Origin: a virus
IMG/VR virus record: IMGVR_UViG_3300005253_000051
Location: 17,506-81,505 of that record
Strand: one strand, 5' to 3'
Length of the DNA stretch: 64,000 nt
Position numbers and translations under genes: made by a program. Shown piece by piece: positions 7,817 to 21,680 of the stretch (positions are counted from its first letter, which is position 1; every line of letters begins with the position of its first letter). The notes beneath the pieces were generated by a model. It saw nothing but the letters and a program-made list of their open reading frames with translations. It ran no database searches and was not told the origin of the DNA.

Positions 7817-8097
7817 CATGATTCGCTATCCTTGAGAATGGCGTCCACCCACGGAGGGGGCTGCTTTTCTGAGTCGGCCGTGGCTTCTTTCCCCCACTCG
7901 AAGCCATCCTGGATCTCTTTATTCAAGAGCACCCACGCTGTATGAGCTGTGCAACAGAGCGACAAGAAAACCTCGCTCAGCACGTGCCCGCTCTTCATGA
8001 GTTTTTCTGCCGTGATATCGGCGCTCTCAGAAACGTTGGCGAGCAATCGCATCGCTCCTTCTAGATCATTTTCAAGATCGAACAGGTCTTCTTCCAT
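7816..8097 (-). CDS. Hypothetical acidic helical protein, 93 aa
   Basis: 93 residues, acidic N terminus (MEEDLFDLENDLEGAM) and helical throughout; ends WVDAILKDSES. It lies one base after the Fis-like gene and so belongs to the CRISPR-proximal transcript. No known accessory Cas family recognised. Confidence 0.6.
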   Translation of the reverse strand: MEEDLFDLENDLEGAMRLLANVSESADITAEKLMKSGHVLSEVFLSLCCTAHTAWVLLNKEIQDGFEWGKEATADSEKQPPPWVDAILKDSES

Positions 8098-8098
8098 T

Positions 8099-8317
8099 TC
8101 ACCCCGTATTCACGATTTTCTGTTTCAGCGTCGAGAACCCAATCCCGAGCTTCTTGGCTGCGCGGTCGCGGTTTCCGTCGCTCTTGGCGAGCACAAAGTT
8201 GGTGTAGAATTTCTCGAACGCATGGCGGGCTCGACGCAGATGCCACGGTCGCTTTATCGAGATCAGGGTATTGATCAGCGTGTCCACTTGGGTTTTGAGC
8301 TGTTTTTCTGGTGTCAT
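8099..8317 (-). CDS. Fis-type helix-turn-helix DNA-binding protein
   Basis: 72 residues. The C-terminal half, AAKKLGIGFSTLKQKI preceded by AKSDGNRDR, is the HTH_8/Fis domain found in Fis and at the end of NtrC-type activators (GN-x-x-x-AAxxLGI-x-x-x-TLxxKI). It lies directly downstream of the CRISPR array on the same strand, so it may regulate the locus or simply share the transcript. Confidence 0.75.
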   Translation of the reverse strand: MTPEKQLKTQVDTLINTLISIKRPWHLRRARHAFEKFYTNFVLAKSDGNRDRAAKKLGIGFSTLKQKIVNTG

Positions 8318-8367
8318 TTTTTGAGACTTACCACAAAAAGGCTAGAAATTCAACTGTGCCACTCGCG

Positions 8368-9835
8368 GTCGCATCTTGAAAGGCGATGCGCTGCCATTGC
8401 TAGTTCGTCGAGAACTGCGACGAGCCCGTCGCATCTTGAAAGGCGATGCGCTGCCATTGCTACGTCGCGTGCCACGCGCCAGGAGACGAGTTGGTGTGCC
8501 GTCGCATCTTGAAAGGCGATGCGCTGCCATTGCTACCTTCCTCTCGGCCGCGGGGTCGCATCTTGAAAGGCGATGCGCTGCCATTGCTACAGCACGACCA
8601 ACGTCGTTGGTTACGGCACCGACGTGTCGCATCTTGAAAGGCGATGCACTGCCATTGCTACCGCGAGCCATCGGTAAACAGTCGCTCGGCTCACTCCGTC
8701 GCATCTTGAAAGGCGATGCGCTGCCATTGCTACGTGGCCGACGCGGCGAAGATCCTGGGCGTATCCACGTCGCATCTTGAAAGGCGATGCGCTGCCATTG
8801 CTACCTCCTCGATGTAGTCGCATTCGACGACCGAGCACGAAAGGTCGCATCTTGAAAGGCGATGCGCTGCCATTGCTACTAGACGGACCGTCTTCGAGTA
8901 CCCGTGATCCAGTCCGTCGCACCTTGAAAGGCGATGCGCTGCCATTGCTACCCGCGCTGGGATCAATTCCGTGAGGAGATCAGACTCGACGTCGCATCTT
9001 GAAAGGCGATGCGCTGCCATTGCTACAAACCAGCGGCGGCGTTCGCGTTCGCTCCCTCCCCCAGTCGCATCTTGTAAGGCGATGCGCTGCCATTGCTACG
9101 CACCAACAGCGCGACGACTGCGCAGAATGACTGGGAGTCGCATCTTGTAAGGCGATGCGCTGCCATTGCTACAGCATATCCATGGAGGAGCACCCCGAGC
9201 TATCAGCCAAGGTCGCATCTTAAAAGGCGATGCGCTGCCATTGCTACGGATGCGGTGCGTACGGCGATTGCGTGAGACAAAGTGAGTCGCATCTTAAAAG
9301 GCGATGCGCTGCCATTGCTACCGAGCTGGGCGACGGCGAACAGAAAACAATTCTGGTCGTCGCATCTTAAAAGGCGATGCGCTGCCATTGCTACATGCGG
9401 CGCACGCCGGTGAGAACAATGCTTCCGCGACGTCGCATCTTAAAAGGCGATGCGCTGCCATTGCTACAGGCAACCTGGCCCCTAGTGGAGTGGACAATTC
9501 GACTGGTCGCATCTTAAAAGGCGATGCGCTGCCATTGCTACACGATGACATTTTTGCGTGCCCATTCATCTGGTGCGACGTCGCATCTTAAAAGGCGATG
9601 CGCTGCCATTGCTACGGATCGGTGCTCTAGCAATCAGCCCACGCTCTTTCGCGTCGCATCTTAAAAGGCGATGCGCTGCCATTGCTACCGTGAAGCCTAC
9701 TGGCGACAGAGCTATCCGGGCACCGTGTCGCATCTTAAAAGGCGATGCGCTGCCATTGCTACAGCCCTACGTAAACGTGTCGATCTGCGTTGATCTCGCG
9801 TCGCATCTTGAAAGGCGATGCGCTGCCATTGCTAC
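8368..9835 (-). CRISPR. Type V CRISPR array, 21 repeats and 20 spacers
   Basis: Repeats are 36 bp, starting at 8368, 8428, 8501, 8555, 8626, 8698, 8769, 8844, 8916, 8991, 9064, 9137, 9212, 9286, 9359, 9432, 9506, 9580, 9653, 9727 and 9800. Spacers are 35-39 nt, except 24 nt (8404-8427) and 18 nt (8537-8554) at the left end. Each repeat holds a 6-bp stem CGCATC/GATGCG. Loop variants cluster: repeats 1-10 and 21 TTGAAAGG, 11-12 TTGTAAGG, 13-20 TTAAAAGG. The two stem variants (repeats 5 and 9) become G-U wobbles only in minus-strand RNA, and that orientation puts the hairpin at the repeat 3' end as in type V crRNAs. The left terminal repeat has a changed last base. The right terminal repeat contains the effector stop codon, so there is no separate leader; the array is probably read through from the effector. 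Confidence 0.97.
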
Positions 9836-11367
9836 GGCGCCTCTGGATCTTTGTGTTTTTTCGCAAACCTAGGCGTGCTTTTTCGAGTGGTTGGGTTACG
9901 GACGTTTCCGATCGCATACATATTCATCATGTTTTGCGTGCTTACGCGGTCACGATCTTCTACGACACCACAGCCCCCACACGTCACCACGCGCTCGGGC
10001 CCGTAGCTGTTGACGAAGCTGCAAGCCGGGCAATGGTTGGTCGTATCGACCGCACAGACGACGGAAACACCCGTGATGCGGCCAAACACGCGCGTGATCT
10101 CTTCAATCACCTCGCCGGGCGCGGCATGATGACCCTGGCGTCGAGCCGGCTTCGGAAGGCTCGTTTTGTTTTCCTTCATCTTCTTGTGGCAGGAATCCTT
10201 GATGACCGCATGCGCGTAGCGTCGGCGTAGATCACGCAGCCAGACGCGCACGTCGTTGCGCCGCCGGGTGACCGACCGGTTACGACACCCTGCTTCGTAC
10301 TGCCACAAGTGCCGCTCCTTCTTGATCCACTTGGTGTGCTCTCCTGGTTTTGCGACACGTCGAACGCTCAGTGTCGATTTCAGTCGTGCGAAAAGTTTTT
10401 TGTTCGAGAATCCGCAAACGGCCAAAATGACGCTCCAAAAACGCTCTTGTTTTTGTAACTCCACAAGGTTCTGATCACGCGCTGATCGTATCCGATCAGC
10501 TTGATCAGCATGCTTCATCCATTTAGGAGGGAGCACCAACTCGTACTCGGCACCGTCGTCACCACGCGCGTAAGCGATGCGCATGCCGTCGTCGGTCTTA
10601 CGCCAACCGACATCGATAGCGACAGCGCCTCGCTCGGCGTTGTCTTTGCGCTCGGGGATATCGCGGCGCGTGAACTGCACAGACCAGATGACACGATCTG
10701 CGACGTACTTGCGGGCGATCTTGACCCACGTGGCCGTACCTTGAAGGGGACGATGCATCTCGAAAGGTAGTGGCTCGGCCCACACAGGCGCTTGGCCTTT
10801 GGATCCCACACGAAGACGGAGCGTGTAGCGCTGTTGCTTTTTCTTACGAGGATCCGGCGCCGACTTGATCAAGAACATCCGGTCTGGATCCTTGTCGCGC
10901 TGGATTTGGACCGCACACATATCACCCTGGCGCCAGCTGCGGAATTTCACCAGCGAGAAAGATTCAGTCTCTTTCCAAGCCGCCGAAAAGTCTTGTTCGA
11001 TCACAAGATAGGTGCCCCAGTATAGGCCACCTTCGGCCGCTTTCTTGCGGAACGGCTTCACGTCAAGAGGAGGCTCAGAACGGTACTGCTTGCGCAGTGC
11101 CTTGTAATGAGCGCGGCAAACCGGACAGAATTTCTTGCACTCGTGCTTTCGTGGTTTGCGTTTCTTGCTTTCCGCTTTATCACAGGTCGAACAAGATTTT
11201 TTGCACACGTGTGTTGCCGGTGAAGGGGGACGATCCCCGCCCCACATAGTCGTGCGCCTCTCGTTCTCCGCTTCGACGAGACTGTTGTAGTAGACACGGC
11301 CCAGGTTCATTTGGGCACACAAGGTGTCCCCACCGGGGAGTGCTCCGTACTTGTAGACTTTGGTCAT
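9832..11367 (-). CDS. Miniature type V effector, Cas12m (V-U1)-like
   Basis: 511 residues. The N terminus (VYKYGALPG...NSLVEAENERR) resembles Cas12m proteins. Residues 53-84 carry two CX3CX2C clusters (C55, C59, C62; C77, C81, C84), an unusual N-terminal zinc-type insert. RuvC-I is AVAIDVGW (Asp252). At the expected RuvC-II site the sequence is HAVIKDSCH, with Lys390-Asp391 where Glu is normal. Zinc ribbon CPAC...CGGC (446-466) and RuvC-III EDRDRVSTQN (Asp473). Adjacent to a 21-repeat array whose last repeat supplies the TAG stop. No cas1, cas2 or cas4 in the locus. It should bind crRNA and target DNA; the missing Glu suggests binding-only interference, as known for Cas12m, or altered cleavage. 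A TnpB-derived relative outside named subtypes is possible. Confidence 0.85.
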   Translation of the reverse strand: MTKVYKYGALPGGDTLCAQMNLGRVYYNSLVEAENERRTTMWGGDRPPSPATHVCKKSCSTCDKAESKKRKPRKHECKKFCPVCRAHYKALRKQYRSEPPLDVKPFRKKAAEGGLYWGTYLVIEQDFSAAWKETESFSLVKFRSWRQGDMCAVQIQRDKDPDRMFLIKSAPDPRKKKQQRYTLRLRVGSKGQAPVWAEPLPFEMHRPLQGTATWVKIARKYVADRVIWSVQFTRRDIPERKDNAERGAVAIDVGWRKTDDGMRIAYARGDDGAEYELVLPPKWMKHADQADRIRSARDQNLVELQKQERFWSVILAVCGFSNKKLFARLKSTLSVRRVAKPGEHTKWIKKERHLWQYEAGCRNRSVTRRRNDVRVWLRDLRRRYAHAVIKDSCHKKMKENKTSLPKPARRQGHHAAPGEVIEEITRVFGRITGVSVVCAVDTTNHCPACSFVNSYGPERVVTCGGCGVVEDRDRVSTQNMMNMYAIGNVRNPTTRKSTPRFAKKHKDPEAP

Positions 11368-11394
11368 GGTTTCTAAGACGTCTAGGCCGTCGAA

Positions 11395-11613
11395 TTATTC
11401 ATCTGAACTGATCTCCTTCCATCGAACAACGACTTCCTCGTCGCCGTCAATTTCCAGGTCCATACCCGACCAATCCCCGCCTCCGGGTACACGCACAAAG
11501 ATCTCCACGCTAGCCGGTAGATCGGTAGCGTAGTGGTCCTTGATGAATTTGATCAGGTCGGCGCGGCCGATTCGAACCGTGTACGTTGATTCTGTTGTCT
11601 TTGTTTTTTCCAT
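11395..11613 (-). CDS. Hypothetical protein, 72 aa
   Basis: 72 acidic residues, YTVRIGRADLIKFIKDHY then DLEIDGDEEVVVRWKE; a small alpha/beta fold. It is the gene immediately upstream (27 bp) of the effector and probably co-transcribed with it. The acidic character would suit a nucleic-acid mimic, but nothing demonstrates this. Confidence 0.6.
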   Translation of the reverse strand: MEKTKTTESTYTVRIGRADLIKFIKDHYATDLPASVEIFVRVPGGGDWSGMDLEIDGDEEVVVRWKEISSDE

Positions 11614-11617
11614 GGGC

Positions 11618-11824
11618 TTACTCGATCAACCATCCTGCTCGCGCCGGGCACCCATCGCCAACGATGATTTCCCAGCCGTATGTAGGCTCGGGCCGCACCT
11701 CGATAACCTCGGTGCGGTAGTAGCGTTCGCCGGAAAAAAGCAGCCCTCGCACATTCGTGGGCTCTTCTTTGACCACTAGCGCCGTTTGGCCGTCGGCGGG
11801 TGAGTAGGTGGACACGATCATCAT
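11618..11824 (-). CDS. Hypothetical protein, 68 aa
   Basis: Starts MMIVSTYSPADGQTALV; beta-rich with RYYRTEVIEVRPE and ends ARAGWLIE. No recognised family. Four bases separate it from the next gene. Confidence 0.55.
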   Translation of the reverse strand: MMIVSTYSPADGQTALVVKEEPTNVRGLLFSGERYYRTEVIEVRPEPTYGWEIIVGDGCPARAGWLIE

Positions 11825-11852
11825 TTCGTACGTCCCCAGCGGAAAATGGTTT

Positions 11853-12125
11853 TCATTTTCGTTGTCTCCTCCAGTAGCGCGTGGCGTGATTGCCGATGCG
11901 CTCCCAGCATTCTTGTGATGGCCCGCGGATGTCTTTGCCGTCGGGTTTCGTCGATGCGATCGCGATCAAGACATCGAGCAACACGCACTCTTCGAGCATG
12001 GTCACCGGCTCGACCCCGAGGCTTCCACAGCGCTGTGACACGTGCTTGATCTGGTTCTCAGGTCCTTGTCGCAGCACGACCGCGAGCGCGACGCCGACAG
12101 CCTTTTCAAGCTCGTGATCGATCAC
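11853..12125 (-). CDS. Hypothetical protein, 90 aa
   Basis: Helical, starts MIDHELEKAVGVALAVVL; contains three cysteines not in zinc spacing and a basic end (RYWRRQRK). ATGA-type overlap with the upstream gene. Function unknown. Confidence 0.55.
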   Translation of the reverse strand: MIDHELEKAVGVALAVVLRQGPENQIKHVSQRCGSLGVEPVTMLEECVLLDVLIAIASTKPDGKDIRGPSQECWERIGNHATRYWRRQRK

Positions 12126-12343
12126 CTTTCGACTCTGTGACGAATATACGCAACCGCATCGAAAGCGATCGTGTATAAGAACTGCACGGGCGAAGTCGTG
12201 AACACGACTTTAATGGTCACCATGTCGGGATACACCTCGATTACTTCTCCTGTAATGACGGGTCCACCAACTAACCCGACGTCGAGTTGCTGTCCGATCT
12301 TGGTTGCGAATACGCGCCTAAACACGATTTTCTTGTTGCTCAC
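12122..12343 (-). CDS. Hypothetical small beta protein, 73 aa
   Basis: GQQLDVGLVGGPVITGEV then IEVYPDMVTIKVVF suggests a small SH3/Sm-like beta barrel. No sequence signature decides the family. It overlaps neighbours on both sides by 4 bp. Confidence 0.55.
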   Translation of the reverse strand: MSNKKIVFRRVFATKIGQQLDVGLVGGPVITGEVIEVYPDMVTIKVVFTTSPVQFLYTIAFDAVAYIRHRVER

Positions 12344-12630
12344 TCGTCTACCTCCGTGAACTCGAAATCTAACTCAAACACGATGGACCCGAAGTCCTCA
12401 GTGAAGTCCTCTTTCGCTTTCTGGATCTGTCGTGGCCCGAGGCTGGCGCCCTCGCCTTCGGCGCTCCAGCCCGTGTCGGTCACGGCGACCGTTCGAAACT
12501 CGCCGTTTTCGTCCTTGGGCCACAGCGCCGCGAACATCAGTTCGCCGTTGGCGTCGCGCGGCCAGCTCTTCGGGAACACCGGCTTGGCATAGAGGCGTTT
12601 CTTCTTCGTTGGTTTGGCTTTTCCGCCCAC
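12340..12630 (-). CDS. Hypothetical protein, 96 aa (GTG start)
   Basis: The GTG at 12630 is preceded by AAGGAG seven bases upstream. Basic N terminus (KAKPTKKKRLYAK), then a repeated-looking WPRDANGELMFAALWP and PKDENGEF, acidic end (DFEFTEVDE). Its frame is overlapped for 233 bp by the upstream gene in another frame. Confidence 0.55.
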   Translation of the reverse strand: MGGKAKPTKKKRLYAKPVFPKSWPRDANGELMFAALWPKDENGEFRTVAVTDTGWSAEGEGASLGPRQIQKAKEDFTEDFGSIVFELDFEFTEVDE

Positions 12631-16152: not shown

Positions 16153-16355
16153 CGCTTCCACGTCTTAATTGGACCACTGCCTGTCATGCCTAGTCGTACC
16201 TCCCACAACATGGGTAACTCGATCTTCTCGAACCATCCGGGGACCGCTTTCTCGGCGGCTTCCTGCGTCCCGTACGCGGCTATAAAGTAGTTCCCTGTGC
16301 CGAAAATGCCGCCAACGCCGCGTCCGTACAGTTTGAATCGCTTTCGAGCCATCAA
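16149..16355 (-). CDS. Hypothetical protein, 68 aa
   Basis: MMARKRFKLYGRGVGGIFG then NYFIAAYGTQEAAEKAVPGW, a small alpha/beta protein with a basic start. ATGA overlap with the VWA gene stop. Unknown function. Confidence 0.55.
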   Translation of the reverse strand: MMARKRFKLYGRGVGGIFGTGNYFIAAYGTQEAAEKAVPGWFEKIELPMLWEVRLGMTGSGPIKTWKR

Positions 16356-17623
16356 CAGCTCCCAATCTCGATGACCCGGGCGCCCTCCGGCACGCTAGCC
16401 CCGTCATAGCCCACGAGCGCCACGACTTTTTGACGAGCACTCGATGGCCACGGAGGCCACACCAAGCCGCCGTCGGTGAGGTGAATCATCACGTCGAAGC
16501 GACCCGCGGCGGCGACCTTCCGGTAAGCGTCTTCGGCGCACGTGCCGCCGCGCCCTCTGAGCGTCTTTTTGATCTCAGCGGGATGGCACTTCGGTGAAAG
16601 CCAGCCCTCCCACTGAACGCCATGATCGTGGGTCACGAGGTAGACCGAGACCCCCGAAGCCTGCGAGATCTTCATCGTCTCAGCGACGAACTGGGACAAC
16701 TCTTCATCCGAAACCGAGCCCGAAGTGTCGATCACGACTGCGGCGCGCGCCGCTGTCGCGTGCCAGCCCGGAAACTGCGCCCCGCGTGCTCGTGAGCGAC
16801 GCCCGCGGCGCGTCCAGGTCTGCGAGTCCCGACCGTGGACCGCGAGCGCAGAAGCCATCCCACGACGCACCACAGCGGCCCAGTTGACGCGAGCTGGCGG
16901 AATGTCGCATATGGTCGCCAGCGCCGCACCCGCGGCGTCGCCGGCTTTGCGCGCCATGGCCTGGGCCTGCGCCGCGATCTTGGACCACTCTTGATCGAGT
17001 TGCGTTTCGCTTTTGGGCTCTTCGCCGTCCTCAGAACCCTCGGGGGGCATGACACCACAGCCGGCGCCGGGGGTAAGGCCGTCGCCGCTCATGGATACCG
17101 AAGGCTTGTCCTGTAAATTCTGAACGATCTGATCGTATATCCGCTCAGCGTGCCAAGTTTCCCACCCGGACTCAGGAAAAATTGCGCCTTTGGAATAACT
17201 CTTGAGCCCCGAGGTCACCAGTGCGTGGTTGATCGCCATGTCCCCGGCGATGTTCCAGACCGAGATCGGCTTTGCGTCAGGATTTGGTTTTCCATCTGGA
17301 AGAGTAGGAGGATACGGTTTCCCATCGGGACCGACGGGGATAACCATCACGGTCCGATTGCCTTGCCGCGCCGCGTGGCGCATTAAAAGATGCATCAGCT
17401 CGTGCGCAATCACCCACTTGAACTGGGCATCGCTGAGTTTTTTGCAAAATGGCGTGTGCAAATAGATGATCCCGTCGGCGGTGACGCCCATGGTATTGAC
17501 CTTGAAACCCACCGCGTCCTCACGAAATCGGACCTTAGCTGCGGGAATCGCGAAAAACGGGGAGTACCAACCCAGGGCGATCGATAGGCGCTTGGCTTTT
17601 TCGACGATTTTGCTCATGGTCAT
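16352..17623 (-). CDS. VWA-like protein with N-terminal metallopeptidase domain
   Basis: 423 residues. The N-terminal domain holds HELMH at 74-78 (VIAHELMHLLMRH), the zinc site of putative metallopeptidases, and DMAINHAL. A Pro/Gly/Glu linker follows, then a VWA-like domain with the MIDAS-type DTSGS (AVVIDTSGSVSDEEL) and THDHG. This is the DUF2201-type VWA/metallopeptidase architecture, which usually pairs with a MoxR AAA+ ATPase; such an ATPase is encoded 2.1 kb upstream (19754-20842). Together they may act as a chaperone or remodelling pair, perhaps in virion or DNA-protein assembly. The target is unknown. Confidence 0.85.
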   Translation of the reverse strand: MTMSKIVEKAKRLSIALGWYSPFFAIPAAKVRFREDAVGFKVNTMGVTADGIIYLHTPFCKKLSDAQFKWVIAHELMHLLMRHAARQGNRTVMVIPVGPDGKPYPPTLPDGKPNPDAKPISVWNIAGDMAINHALVTSGLKSYSKGAIFPESGWETWHAERIYDQIVQNLQDKPSVSMSGDGLTPGAGCGVMPPEGSEDGEEPKSETQLDQEWSKIAAQAQAMARKAGDAAGAALATICDIPPARVNWAAVVRRGMASALAVHGRDSQTWTRRGRRSRARGAQFPGWHATAARAAVVIDTSGSVSDEELSQFVAETMKISQASGVSVYLVTHDHGVQWEGWLSPKCHPAEIKKTLRGRGGTCAEDAYRKVAAAGRFDVMIHLTDGGLVWPPWPSSARQKVVALVGYDGASVPEGARVIEIGSC

Positions 17624-19434: not shown

Positions 19435-19757
19435 TGGTGTTTTCCTTCAAAAATCAGCTCATTTATCTTGGATTCAGCTTCCTCTCGCGAAAGAAATATC
19501 TCTAGGCGGCCGATGGAGATGCCGTACTCGTTCAGTCGAACGACTTGATATTCAGTTCCACCAAACAACCTATGAGTGACGACCATGAAAATAACCTGTC
19601 GGCCTAACGAGTCGGCGCGCCTCGCTCGGACTCTGAATTCTTGATCAGACTCATCAAACCACCATCGCCTTCGCTTTCGTCGCAGACCGAAGAGGACTAA
19701 CACAAGGTTGTCAAGCCCAGGACCATAGAATAGATCAATCGCGTCGGTCTCCTTCAC
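19431..19757 (-). CDS. Hypothetical protein, 108 aa
   Basis: Starts MKETDAIDLFYGPGLDNLV; contains FGLRRKRRRWWFDESDQEF and ends with a charged helix (SREEAESKINELIFEGKHQ). 4-bp overlap with the MoxR gene, so it is likely in its operon. Confidence 0.55.
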   Translation of the reverse strand: MKETDAIDLFYGPGLDNLVLVLFGLRRKRRRWWFDESDQEFRVRARRADSLGRQVIFMVVTHRLFGGTEYQVVRLNEYGISIGRLEIFLSREEAESKINELIFEGKHQ

Positions 19758-20842
19758 AGACCCATCGCGTTCCCGGCCTTGCCGAGCAAAGTCACCATGG
19801 CTTTTTTGCCCTTCGCCTGAAAGCGCTTTTTCCCGTGCTGCCGGCGGGACATGAGCGCTTTGGCCGCCGATGCGCCGATTTCATCCCGCAGGCGGCTCGC
19901 GTAGATCCACGCCGCCCAGCAATCCGCATCTGCGACGTTGGCCAAAAGCCCGAGCGCGCCTACCTGGTACATCGCGTTGTCCGGCACCTTGGCGCCGTCG
20001 GGGTTGACCACGATCTCGCTGATCGTGGGTAGGTGGATTCGGTACTCGCGGATCCCCATGTAGCTCGCGGCCCCATGCTCACCCACCGAACCCGACAGAA
20101 TCAGGTGAGCGATTTCATCGCCCACGTTCTCACCTGCTTGCGCCCACGCGCACAGCCCGCGTTCCCAGTCGCGCGGCGATGCCCACTTGGCGCCTTCGTT
20201 GACCGCAGCCGGTGGCGGGTCAAACTGGACCATTTCGGGCGCATGCTCAGCCGTCGCGGCGAAATCCTGTGCCAGCGCCCGTAGCGGGCTGTCATCGGCG
20301 CCCAGCTTGTACAAATAACTTTGGAACTCAGACAGTGTAGGTTCGAAGGTGTAGACGGAGAACCGGCCCATGAGCGGCGCACAGGGCTCGGTGCCACCCG
20401 GAGACTGCTCCACGGGGTTGGCGAACGCGATCACACGGGACTCAGGGTGAAGCGTCACATCGCCGAACGTGCGTTCCAGGATGCCGCGGAGTAAAACCGC
20501 CTGAACCGCCGGGGGCGCGGTGAACAGCTCGTCGAGAATCAGCAAGCATGGTTTTTCGGCCGCTTCGCGGATCACGCGCATCGGAATGCGGTCGAACGCA
20601 CCGCCATCGCCCACGACCGGGAATCCGCCGATGTCCGTCGGATCACACGTGGACCCGATGACCGTGACGGCTTCGAGCTGAAAGCCGAGCGCCGCGGAAA
20701 GCTCAGGGACCAGATCATGGCCGAGTGTGGTTTTGCCCACGCCGGGCGAACCGATCAACAGGACGGCTTTGTTCGCGATGAGGTACGGCATAATGACGGG
20801 GAGCGCGGTCGAAAAAGTGAGTTTGGGATACGTGGTGGCCAT
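19754..20842 (-). CDS. MoxR-type AAA+ ATPase
   Basis: About 362 residues from the ATG at 20842 (MATTYPKLTFSTALPVIMPY), which has AGGA upstream; the open frame continues 57 codons further without support. Walker A GSPGVGKT (31-38), Walker B region CLLILDELFTAPPAVQ, sensor region VIAFANPVEQ followed by MGRF. This is the MoxR/RavA family, which partners VWA proteins such as the 16352-17623 product. Likely remodels or loads a phage or host complex. A Lys-rich tail (RRQHGKKRFQAKGKKAM) is unusual. Confidence 0.85.
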   Translation of the reverse strand: MATTYPKLTFSTALPVIMPYLIANKAVLLIGSPGVGKTTLGHDLVPELSAALGFQLEAVTVIGSTCDPTDIGGFPVVGDGGAFDRIPMRVIREAAEKPCLLILDELFTAPPAVQAVLLRGILERTFGDVTLHPESRVIAFANPVEQSPGGTEPCAPLMGRFSVYTFEPTLSEFQSYLYKLGADDSPLRALAQDFAATAEHAPEMVQFDPPPAAVNEGAKWASPRDWERGLCAWAQAGENVGDEIAHLILSGSVGEHGAASYMGIREYRIHLPTISEIVVNPDGAKVPDNAMYQVGALGLLANVADADCWAAWIYASRLRDEIGASAAKALMSRRQHGKKRFQAKGKKAMVTLLGKAGNAMGL

Positions 20843-20916
20843 GGTCTTTGTCCTGGTTTGGGATGCGCTGTGAGATAACTCAGACGGAACCCACCTGATC
20901 AAATTCATGAAAAACA

Positions 20917-20949
20917 GAAAAAGCCCGAAACCACTAAGGGTTCCGGGCT
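20917..20949 (-). terminator. Rho-independent terminator, minus strand
   Basis: On the minus strand AGCCCGGAACC, a 6-nt loop and GGTTTCGGGCT form an 11-bp stem with one G-U pair, followed by TTTTT. It separates the virion-like block starting at 27.1 kb from the MoxR operon. Confidence 0.8.
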
Positions 20950-20969
20950 GATCCAGGCTAGAAATCGAA

Positions 20970-21680
20970 CTACACGAACTCCGCAGAAATCTCCGTGTCG
21001 GTATTGCCTCCACCGATGGCGCCCGCTTTCACTCCGATAAAGTCGATGAGATCCCCCATAGAAACAGGCACAGTGGAAACTAGATTACTTGCGCTTCCGA
21101 TAGCTCCAGTAAGCAAAGTCACCGAAGCAGCATCGATCCCGTTCACACGGAGACGGTAGTCAATGGGGCTGCCGTTCCCACCGGCCGCATTGTGTCTAGC
21201 AAAAAACTTCTGGAACACGCCAGGACGAGGCGCATTGAACGTGAAATCACGTGATGAAGACGCATTTCCTTGTCCTCGACCGGGCGTGAGAAAAACTGTT
21301 CCGGGACCCGCTGTCAGGAAATCGTTTCCCCATAAGGCAAGAGCGCTGGTACCCCCACCAGGCCCCGCGCCTCCAGCTTGGTTGAGGATGAATGGCCGAA
21401 CGGAAAGCCCGTCTGGCTGAAAAGCCCCGTTAGCGCCGAACGCCCGTAAAATGGTGTGCAGATGAGCAACCCATACATCGACATTTGGACCTGGAGATGT
21501 CGCAGTGCGGACTACCGTAACGGTTGTTCCGTTCGCTGTAACGACAAACGGCCCGAGTGCCGGGGCGACGAAATCGGGGATGAGGGGGAACCCGTCCTGA
21601 TTCAGATCATGGTCGAGTATTTGGGGGACGCCGACTACCAAACCGGTAAACATCAGCGTCCGATAAAGTCGATTCGCCAT
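20970..21680 (-). CDS. Virion-type beta protein, paralogue of the 24.8-27.1 kb trio
   Basis: 236 residues. The N-terminal ~115 residues match the three tandem paralogues in order: FTGLVVGVPQ, PDFVAPALGPFVV, VDVWVAHLHTILRAFGA, QPDGLS and RPFILNQAG. The C-terminal half is different, beta-rich and Gly/Asn-rich (RLRVNGIDAASVTLLTG). Likely a capsid-surface, spike or decoration protein with a shared base domain and a swapped tip. It is the last gene before the terminator. Confidence 0.65.
   Translation of the reverse strand: MANRLYRTLMFTGLVVGVPQILDHDLNQDGFPLIPDFVAPALGPFVVTANGTTVTVVRTATSPGPNVDVWVAHLHTILRAFGANGAFQPDGLSVRPFILNQAGGAGPGGGTSALALWGNDFLTAGPGTVFLTPGRGQGNASSSRDFTFNAPRPGVFQKFFARHNAAGGNGSPIDYRLRVNGIDAASVTLLTGAIGSASNLVSTVPVSMGDLIDFIGVKAGAIGGGNTDTEISAEFV

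What the first reader, a model, noticed from the sequence alone, without database searches (positions are those of the whole stretch)
8099..11367. Minimal phage-type Cas12m-like CRISPR locus with array fused to the effector stop codon
The effector TAG (9832-9834) lies inside the last array repeat (9800-9835), so there is no room for a leader on that side. No cas1 or cas2 is present, and a Fis-type HTH gene follows the array. Seen: gene, repeats, shared bases. Known: Cas12m systems often lack adaptation genes. Inferred: effector and array are one transcript, and spacers are gained in trans or by recombination.
Basis: partly seen in the sequence, partly recalled or inferred. Interest (0 to 1): 0.9.

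Follow-up and report, generated by a model that had tools for sequence, protein, structure and literature searches.

The report
Phage CRISPR leader hidden inside effector
A bacterial virus carries a one-gene CRISPR system whose DNA-binding protein gene runs straight into its own guide array, so the end of the gene also serves as the array's conserved leader and first repeat; this fusion is shared by a small family of phages and makes the coupling of a CRISPR protein to its guides open to test.

Summary
The ORF at 9832-11367(-) is a Cas12m (subtype V-M) effector. Its TAG stop is bases 2-4 of the FIRST repeat in crRNA direction of a 21-repeat, 20-spacer array (8368-9835). No cas1 or cas2 was found in the 81.5-kb virus record. 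Four intact phage lineages (this one, L005, L011/L012, L013/L014; 45-50% identical) form one clade in which the effector ORF enters the first repeat in the same frame, exactly 18 nt after a conserved His-Lys, with stops at different places inside the repeat. The catalytic RuvC-II Glu is Lys in all four (D-K-D), so the protein is probably a DNA-binding silencer. The repeat folds into the Cas12m crRNA pseudoknot, with strong covariation over 12 loci. The effector 3' end therefore encodes protein and probably the CRISPR leader, and it runs into the first guide scaffold. Phage-borne V-M without adaptation genes is known; the leader and repeat inside the ORF is a new variant. Targets, transcription and the box's function are untested.

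The parts
9832..11367 (-). Cas12m (subtype V-M) effector, 511 aa; predicted RuvC triad D252-K390-D473
   Evidence: PADLOC Cas12u1 1.2e-50; Cas12m structures by sequence and fold; alignments
10198..10200 (-). codon of Lys390, at the position of the RuvC-II catalytic Glu (end of predicted strand 386-390)
   Evidence: alignments; model
8368..9835 (-). CRISPR array, 21 repeats of 36 nt and 20 spacers, transcribed in the effector's direction
   Evidence: crRNA pseudoknot covariation
9800..9835 (-). first repeat; bases 2-4 (9834-9832) are the effector stop codon TAG
9880..9887 (-). leader box CTCGAAAA at -52 to -45 from the first repeat, inside the effector ORF (codons T-T-R-K)
   Evidence: chance rate
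8368..8403 (-). last repeat, terminal base changed (CTAG... instead of GTAG...); trailer end
   Evidence: sequence
8404..8427 (-). 24-nt spacer at the trailer end (another short one, 18 nt, at 8537-8554)
8099..8317 (-). small Fis-type HTH gene after the array; no such gene seen beside the array in related phages, so probably not part of the system
   Evidence: HTH_8 1.4e-7; ORFs of L005, L011, L013
11395..11613 (-). small phage ORF (phrog_32511, unknown function) 27 nt upstream of the effector, same strand

Best explanation
A phage-borne subtype V-M (Cas12m) CRISPR locus in which effector and array are one physical and probably one transcriptional unit. SHOWN by sequence: the effector's coding sequence contains a leader box at -52 and ends inside the first repeat; this junction (frame and 18-nt spacing) is conserved in four phage lineages; the repeat has the Cas12m crRNA pseudoknot in the effector's direction; the RuvC-II Glu is replaced by Lys. 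INFERRED: (1) effector and array are transcribed together, and Cas12m trims crRNAs from the 3' part of its own mRNA, as TnpB does with its guide RNA; (2) the Cas12m-crRNA complex binds DNA without cutting and blocks transcription of competing phages or plasmids; (3) the embedded box and first repeat are the leader end used for spacer integration by a Cas1-Cas2 supplied in trans, which is compatible with the overlap because integration would duplicate the first repeat and leave the ORF end intact; (4) because the ribosome must terminate on the first crRNA scaffold, translating the effector and maturing the first guide compete on the same RNA, a possible built-in brake.
For: Family. Clade and Lys390: (monophyly 100/100). 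Junction: (window ...GCG CCG TAG CAA TGG CAG; L005 ...TCG GAA TGC CAG CGC AGT GGC TTA TGA; L011 ...AAC CAA TGC CAG CGC GAC GGC TTA TGA; L013 ...CCG GAA TGC TAG), with six codons from His-Lys to the CAA/GAA codon in all four. Leader box: exact CTCG[AC]AA at -52 in window, L005, L011, L013, L008, L017, L018, at -51 in L006 and L020; variants at -51/-52 in L002, L003, L010, L015, L019; positional conservation in 8 loci outside the clade reached by 0 of 1000 permutations; Pelobacter plasmid locus, not used to find it, has it at -53; chance of an exact box at -51 to -53 about 0.0004. Codon choice in the ORF tail: same-codon fraction 0.62-0.81 against 0.28-0.44 in the body. crRNA: 108 of 108 cells paired, 36 with changes on both sides, slid controls 27-41%; same layout as the Cas12m2 crRNA (PMC10442227). 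DNA binding without cleavage by Cas12m, D-E-D members included: PMC11013384. TnpB processes its own mRNA: PMC10278001. Operon setting: upstream genes overlap the effector start in L005 and L011.
Against: No RNA data. No protospacer found, so neither targets nor PAM are known. The box is absent in L007, in two plasmid loci (Methylomonas L040, Mycobacterium L048) and in the single-unit Manganitrophus loci, so it is not universal. The box could be a promoter element instead. Codon constraint is not significant for every pair (p 0.06-0.5 for pairs with the window; below 0.001 for two others). Within the clade the four boxes are homologous, hence not independent. L020 has a 17-nt instead of an 18-nt junction and a broken effector.
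Confidence: 0.62

Rival explanations
1. The -52 box is part of an internal promoter of the array: it lies in the effector's 3' end for want of space, and array and effector are separate transcripts.
For: Fixed distance to the first repeat and intergenic position in relatives suit a promoter as well as an integration leader.
Against: Only one conserved block; no second block at promoter-like spacing stands out in the column scan; no sigma-70-like site in 8000-12400 (weak because the host is unknown and shuffles give only 1.8).
Confidence: 0.22
2. The overlap is a neutral accident: a deletion removed the intergenic stretch in the clade's ancestor, and the ORF simply reads on to the first stop in the repeat. 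No coupling of function.
For: Stops fall at different places inside the repeat; phage genomes are compact; L007 (3-nt gap) and L040 (10-nt gap) show that short gaps also occur elsewhere.
Against: Frame and the 18-nt spacing are unchanged over lineages only 45-50% identical, while the repeats themselves have diverged; the leader box kept its exact -52 position inside the ORF.
Confidence: 0.3
3. A decaying or passive array: effector and array are kept by chance, no new spacers are gained, and the phage uses the protein for something else.
For: No cas1/cas2 in the record; no spacer targets found; terminal repeat and short spacers at the trailer end.
Against: 21 repeats with at most one difference each over the conserved core, all spacers different, intact effector with conserved crRNA-binding fold; the array survives in four divergent lineages.
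Confidence: 0.12

Closest known systems
Subtype V-M CRISPR-Cas12m (formerly V-U1): MsCas12m of Meiothermus silvanus plasmid pMESIL02, MmCas12m2, GoCas12m
   Same: Single compact effector with RuvC and zinc finger, no adaptation genes, 36-nt repeats with the same crRNA pseudoknot, array downstream in the effector's direction; 27% identity to MsCas12m over 527 columns
   Different: RuvC triad D-K-D instead of the published D-E-D, H-D-D or N-D-D; effector ORF contains the leader box and ends in the first repeat (MsCas12m: 151 nt from stop to array)
Cas12m of Virus Rctr197k (KX853510), annotated there as a transposase
   Same: Phage genome, Cas12m next to an array in the same orientation, leader box variant at -52 reaching into the ORF
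   Different: 33-nt gap between stop and first repeat, D-E-D triad, degenerate distal repeats; 29% identity
TnpB with its guide RNA (IS200/IS605)
   Same: Guide RNA scaffold at the 3' end of the effector gene; TnpB cuts its guide from its own mRNA (PMC10278001)
   Different: Here a real CRISPR array with 20 spacers and a short 36-nt scaffold; the effector is closer to Cas12m than to any TnpB
Phage-encoded type V systems of huge phages and landfill phages (PMC7162821, PMC12607003)
   Same: Compact Cas12 relatives, Cas12m-like ones included, without Cas1/Cas2, in phage genomes
   Different: The overlap of leader and first repeat with the effector ORF was not found described in the papers searched here

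Membership tests
Subtype V-M (Cas12m) | Effector homologous over its length to Cas12m | tested here: met
   PADLOC Cas12u1 residues 2-482, E 1.2e-50; profile against PDB Cas12m 5.8e-132, Cas12m2 6.9e-78, GoCas12m 8pm4 2.3e-70; Foldseek ranks 1-4 Cas12m
Subtype V-M (Cas12m) | RuvC-like domain that does not cleave DNA | tested here: inconclusive
   RuvC-II Glu replaced by Lys, which predicts no cleavage; activity itself not testable here
Subtype V-M (Cas12m) | Single crRNA with 36-nt repeat, pseudoknot plus stem, terminal AC | tested here: met
   108 of 108 cells paired over 12 loci, layout as in PMC10442227
Subtype V-M (Cas12m) | No adaptation genes in the locus | tested here: met
   no Cas1 or Cas2 in 81.5 kb; no Cas1 in six related phage records
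Subtype V-M (Cas12m) | No tracrRNA | not tested
   only an Rfam scan, no match in the window
Subtype V-M (Cas12m) | PAM-dependent DNA binding and transcription block | not testable with these tools
   needs a bench assay
Subtype V-F (Cas12f) | Effector closest to Cas12f | tested here: not met
   PDB profile E about 1e-8 or weaker for Cas12f against 5.8e-132 for Cas12m
TnpB / OMEGA | Single guide RNA next to transposon end, no CRISPR array | tested here: not met
   21-repeat array; TnpB scores far below Cas12m

The most novel reading that the evidence does not exclude
In this phage clade the effector mRNA is a self-limiting guide precursor: the C-terminal codons double as CRISPR leader, the ribosome terminates on the first crRNA scaffold, and Cas12m binding or cutting of that scaffold shuts off further effector translation. 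It would be a CRISPR system regulated through coding overlap, organised like TnpB and its guide RNA.
Probability: 0.3. Interest if true: 0.82.

Novelty: new variant of a known kind. Interest (0 to 1): 0.62.

Why it matters
CRISPR leaders are expected to be non-coding. Here the leader-like element and the first repeat are coding sequence of the effector, conserved over divergent phages, which directly ties making the protein to making its guides. It gives a concrete, mutable site for asking how minimal phage systems without Cas1-Cas2 gain or keep spacers, and whether Cas12m retains the TnpB way of cutting guides out of its own message. The -52 box is also a testable candidate leader signal for subtype V-M, for which I found no leader description in the papers searched.

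Tried and rejected
Spacer targets: own genome and fetched loci, chance matches only; phage and plasmid collections, best E about 1; exact 20-24-nt seeds of spacers 1 and 2 in IMG/VR, none. The window's repeat core in other IMG/VR contigs: none. Dispersed solo repeats in the window: none. AlphaFold with 4 sequences: poor (pLDDT 46); with 11 sequences: usable (pLDDT 78). Self-targeting by the dispersed units of L009: no excess over shuffles. A hairpin at the leader box: visible by eye in L008, L015 and L018 but not conserved, so not taken as an RNA element. Fis gene as a partner: not seen beside the array in relatives. Bacterial distribution: 1 of 395 genomes of the phylum of the L020 MAG, that one being the MAG itself.

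Full report
WHAT IS THERE. The ORF at 9832-11367(-) encodes 511 aa; its TAG stop lies in the 36-nt repeat 9800-9835. Read in the effector's direction, that repeat is the first of 21 (20 spacers). The last repeat (8368-8403) has a changed terminal base, and the two short spacers (18 and 24 nt) are also at that end, so the far end looks like the trailer. In effector order the repeats carry sequence variants in blocks: TTTCAA (first repeat), TTTTAA in the next eight, TTACAA in two, then TTTCAA again. A Fis-type HTH gene follows. The record is an IMG/VR virus contig of 81,505 bases with a phage-like DNA polymerase A, helicase, ThyX, adenine methyltransferase, dNMP phosphatase, endolysin-like peptidase and tyrosine integrase.

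WHAT THE EFFECTOR IS. It matches PADLOC Cas12u1 over residues 2-482 (1.2e-50). A profile of 11 relatives finds the solved Cas12m structures first (5.8e-132 to 1.8e-52), with TnpB and Cas12f far behind. A model with pLDDT 78 has four solved Cas12m chains as its best fold matches. RuvC-I Asp252 and RuvC-III Asp473 are kept. The RuvC-II Glu is Lys390 in this protein and its three close relatives. Published Cas12m triads are D-E-D, H-D-D and N-D-D, and the members tested, D-E-D ones included, bind DNA without cutting (PMC11013384, PMC10442227); a D-K-D site should be at least as inactive (inference).

THE JUNCTION IS CONSERVED. IMG/VR scans gave three further intact lineages at 45-50% identity: L005, L011/L012, L013/L014. 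With the window they form one clade at 100/100 support. In each, the effector ORF runs into the first repeat, in the same frame, and with exactly six codons between a conserved His-Lys and the CAA/GAA codon of the repeat. The stop is at repeat bases 2-4 (window), 26-28 (L005, L011) and 11-13 (L013). A MAG contig (L020) carries a broken fifth member with Lys at RuvC-II and a 17-nt junction; its tail is out of frame after a run of G. More distant Cas12m loci mostly have gaps: L015 23, L002 33, L008 56, L006 83, L018 126, L017 133, L019 140, MsCas12m 151 nt; L007 has 3 nt and the Methylomonas plasmid 10 nt.

THE GUIDE SCAFFOLD. Twelve repeats from divergent loci share a stem (columns 9-11 with 20-22) and a pseudoknot (14-19 with 30-35): 108 of 108 cells pair, 36 through changes on both sides, and slid controls fall to 27-41%. 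This is the architecture of the Cas12m2 crRNA, with its non-canonical G-A pair and terminal C (PMC10442227). It fixes the transcription direction and shows that the first repeat, which holds the stop codon, is a complete scaffold.

A LEADER INSIDE THE ORF. Aligning loci at the first repeat shows CTCG[AC]AA at -52 in the window (9880-9887), L005, L011 and L013, where it is coding (T-[A/T]-R-K). The same box is at -52 in the intergenic stretches of L008, L017 and L018, at -51 in L006 and L020, and in one-mismatch forms at -51/-52 in L002, L003, L010, L015 and L019. Using only eight loci outside the clade, no permutation of 1000 reached the observed positional conservation. A Pelobacter plasmid locus that played no part in finding the box has CTCGAAA at -53. 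Chance of an exact box at -51 to -53 is about 0.0004, and with one mismatch 0.008. Misses: L007, Methylomonas L040, Mycobacterium L048, and the single-unit Manganitrophus loci. In the clade, codon choice around the box is more conserved than in the body (same codon 0.62-0.81 against 0.28-0.44); after correcting for amino acid the excess is clear for two pairs (p below 0.001) and weak for the rest. So the array is not leaderless: the probable leader is coding sequence of the effector.

HOW IT MOST LIKELY WORKS. Effector and array read as one unit: the upstream gene overlaps the effector start in L005 and L011, no promoter-like site was seen in 8000-12400 (weak), and the effector ends in the array. 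I infer one transcript from which Cas12m cuts crRNAs. TnpB, the relative from which Cas12 descends, does this with its own mRNA (PMC10278001), and Cas12m processes pre-crRNA without its RuvC site (PMC11013384, PMC10442227). The complex then probably silences competing elements by binding. Integration at the leader-repeat border would duplicate the first repeat and leave the ORF end unchanged, so trans-acting Cas1-Cas2 could still add spacers; this is unproven. A terminating ribosome would cover part of the first scaffold, so translation and guide maturation may exclude each other on one RNA; that is the most novel reading and is untested.

WHAT IS KNOWN AND WHAT IS NEW. Phage-borne compact type V systems without Cas1-Cas2 are known (PMC7162821, PMC12607003), and V-M is enriched in plasmids and found in prophages (PMC11656645). 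A Cas12m beside an array is already present, annotated as a transposase, in Virus Rctr197k. New here, as far as the searched papers show: the conserved fusion of effector ORF, leader box and first repeat; the D-K-D site; and the -52 box as a candidate V-M leader signal.

LIMITS. No RNA or protein data, no targets found, host unknown, the record may be incomplete, and near relatives of this record may be left out of the collections searched.

Noticed in passing
L009/L027-L035 (IMGVR_UViG_3300014613_000001, 178 kb; same phage as L007): About 30 solitary crRNA-like units (GCTGGGAGGTTTAGTGATCCCAGAC core) dispersed over the genome, many 14-25 nt after a gene's stop codon, some in pairs 51-58 nt apart, beside a Cas12m with RuvC-I Asp changed to Asn. 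Looks like an array broken up into single guide units. No excess of self-targets.
   Followed up: partly
L036 4247-4282 and L037 (Candidatus Manganitrophus plasmids CP114554, CP114559): Cas12m with Lys at RuvC-II and a single crRNA unit, no array, overlapping the effector stop codon TAA. The tree needs a second origin of the Lys. Resembles a TnpB-like one-guide arrangement, or the remnant of an array.
   Followed up: partly
L011 contig (G002) and L013 contig (G001): Besides the compact array, solitary repeats of the same family lie outside it: downstream of the array in L013, upstream, downstream and at the contig ends in L011.
   Followed up: partly
window 8368-9835: Repeat variants occur in blocks along the array (first repeat TTTCAA, next eight TTTTAA, two TTACAA, rest TTTCAA), odd for simple leader-end growth because the first repeat differs from its neighbours.
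   Followed up: no
L002 208-462: Virus Rctr197k has a second small CRISPR array with a different repeat and no effector annotated beside it.
   Followed up: no
L005 3071-3925: ORF with a caspase-like HYSGHG motif on the same phage contig as the related Cas12m (by eye).
   Followed up: no
window 16352-17623 and 19754-21013: DUF2201/VWA-metallopeptidase gene near an AAA ATPase gene, a MoxR-like pair in a phage.
   Followed up: no
L020 3025-4814 (MAG contig JAUYJC010000630.1): Cas12m relative whose N-terminal half is missing, preceded by a long low-complexity repeat stretch, with its conserved tail out of frame after a run of G.
   Followed up: partly
L004 10909-11949: Tyrosine integrase in the window's phage record, suggesting a temperate phage.
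   Followed up: no
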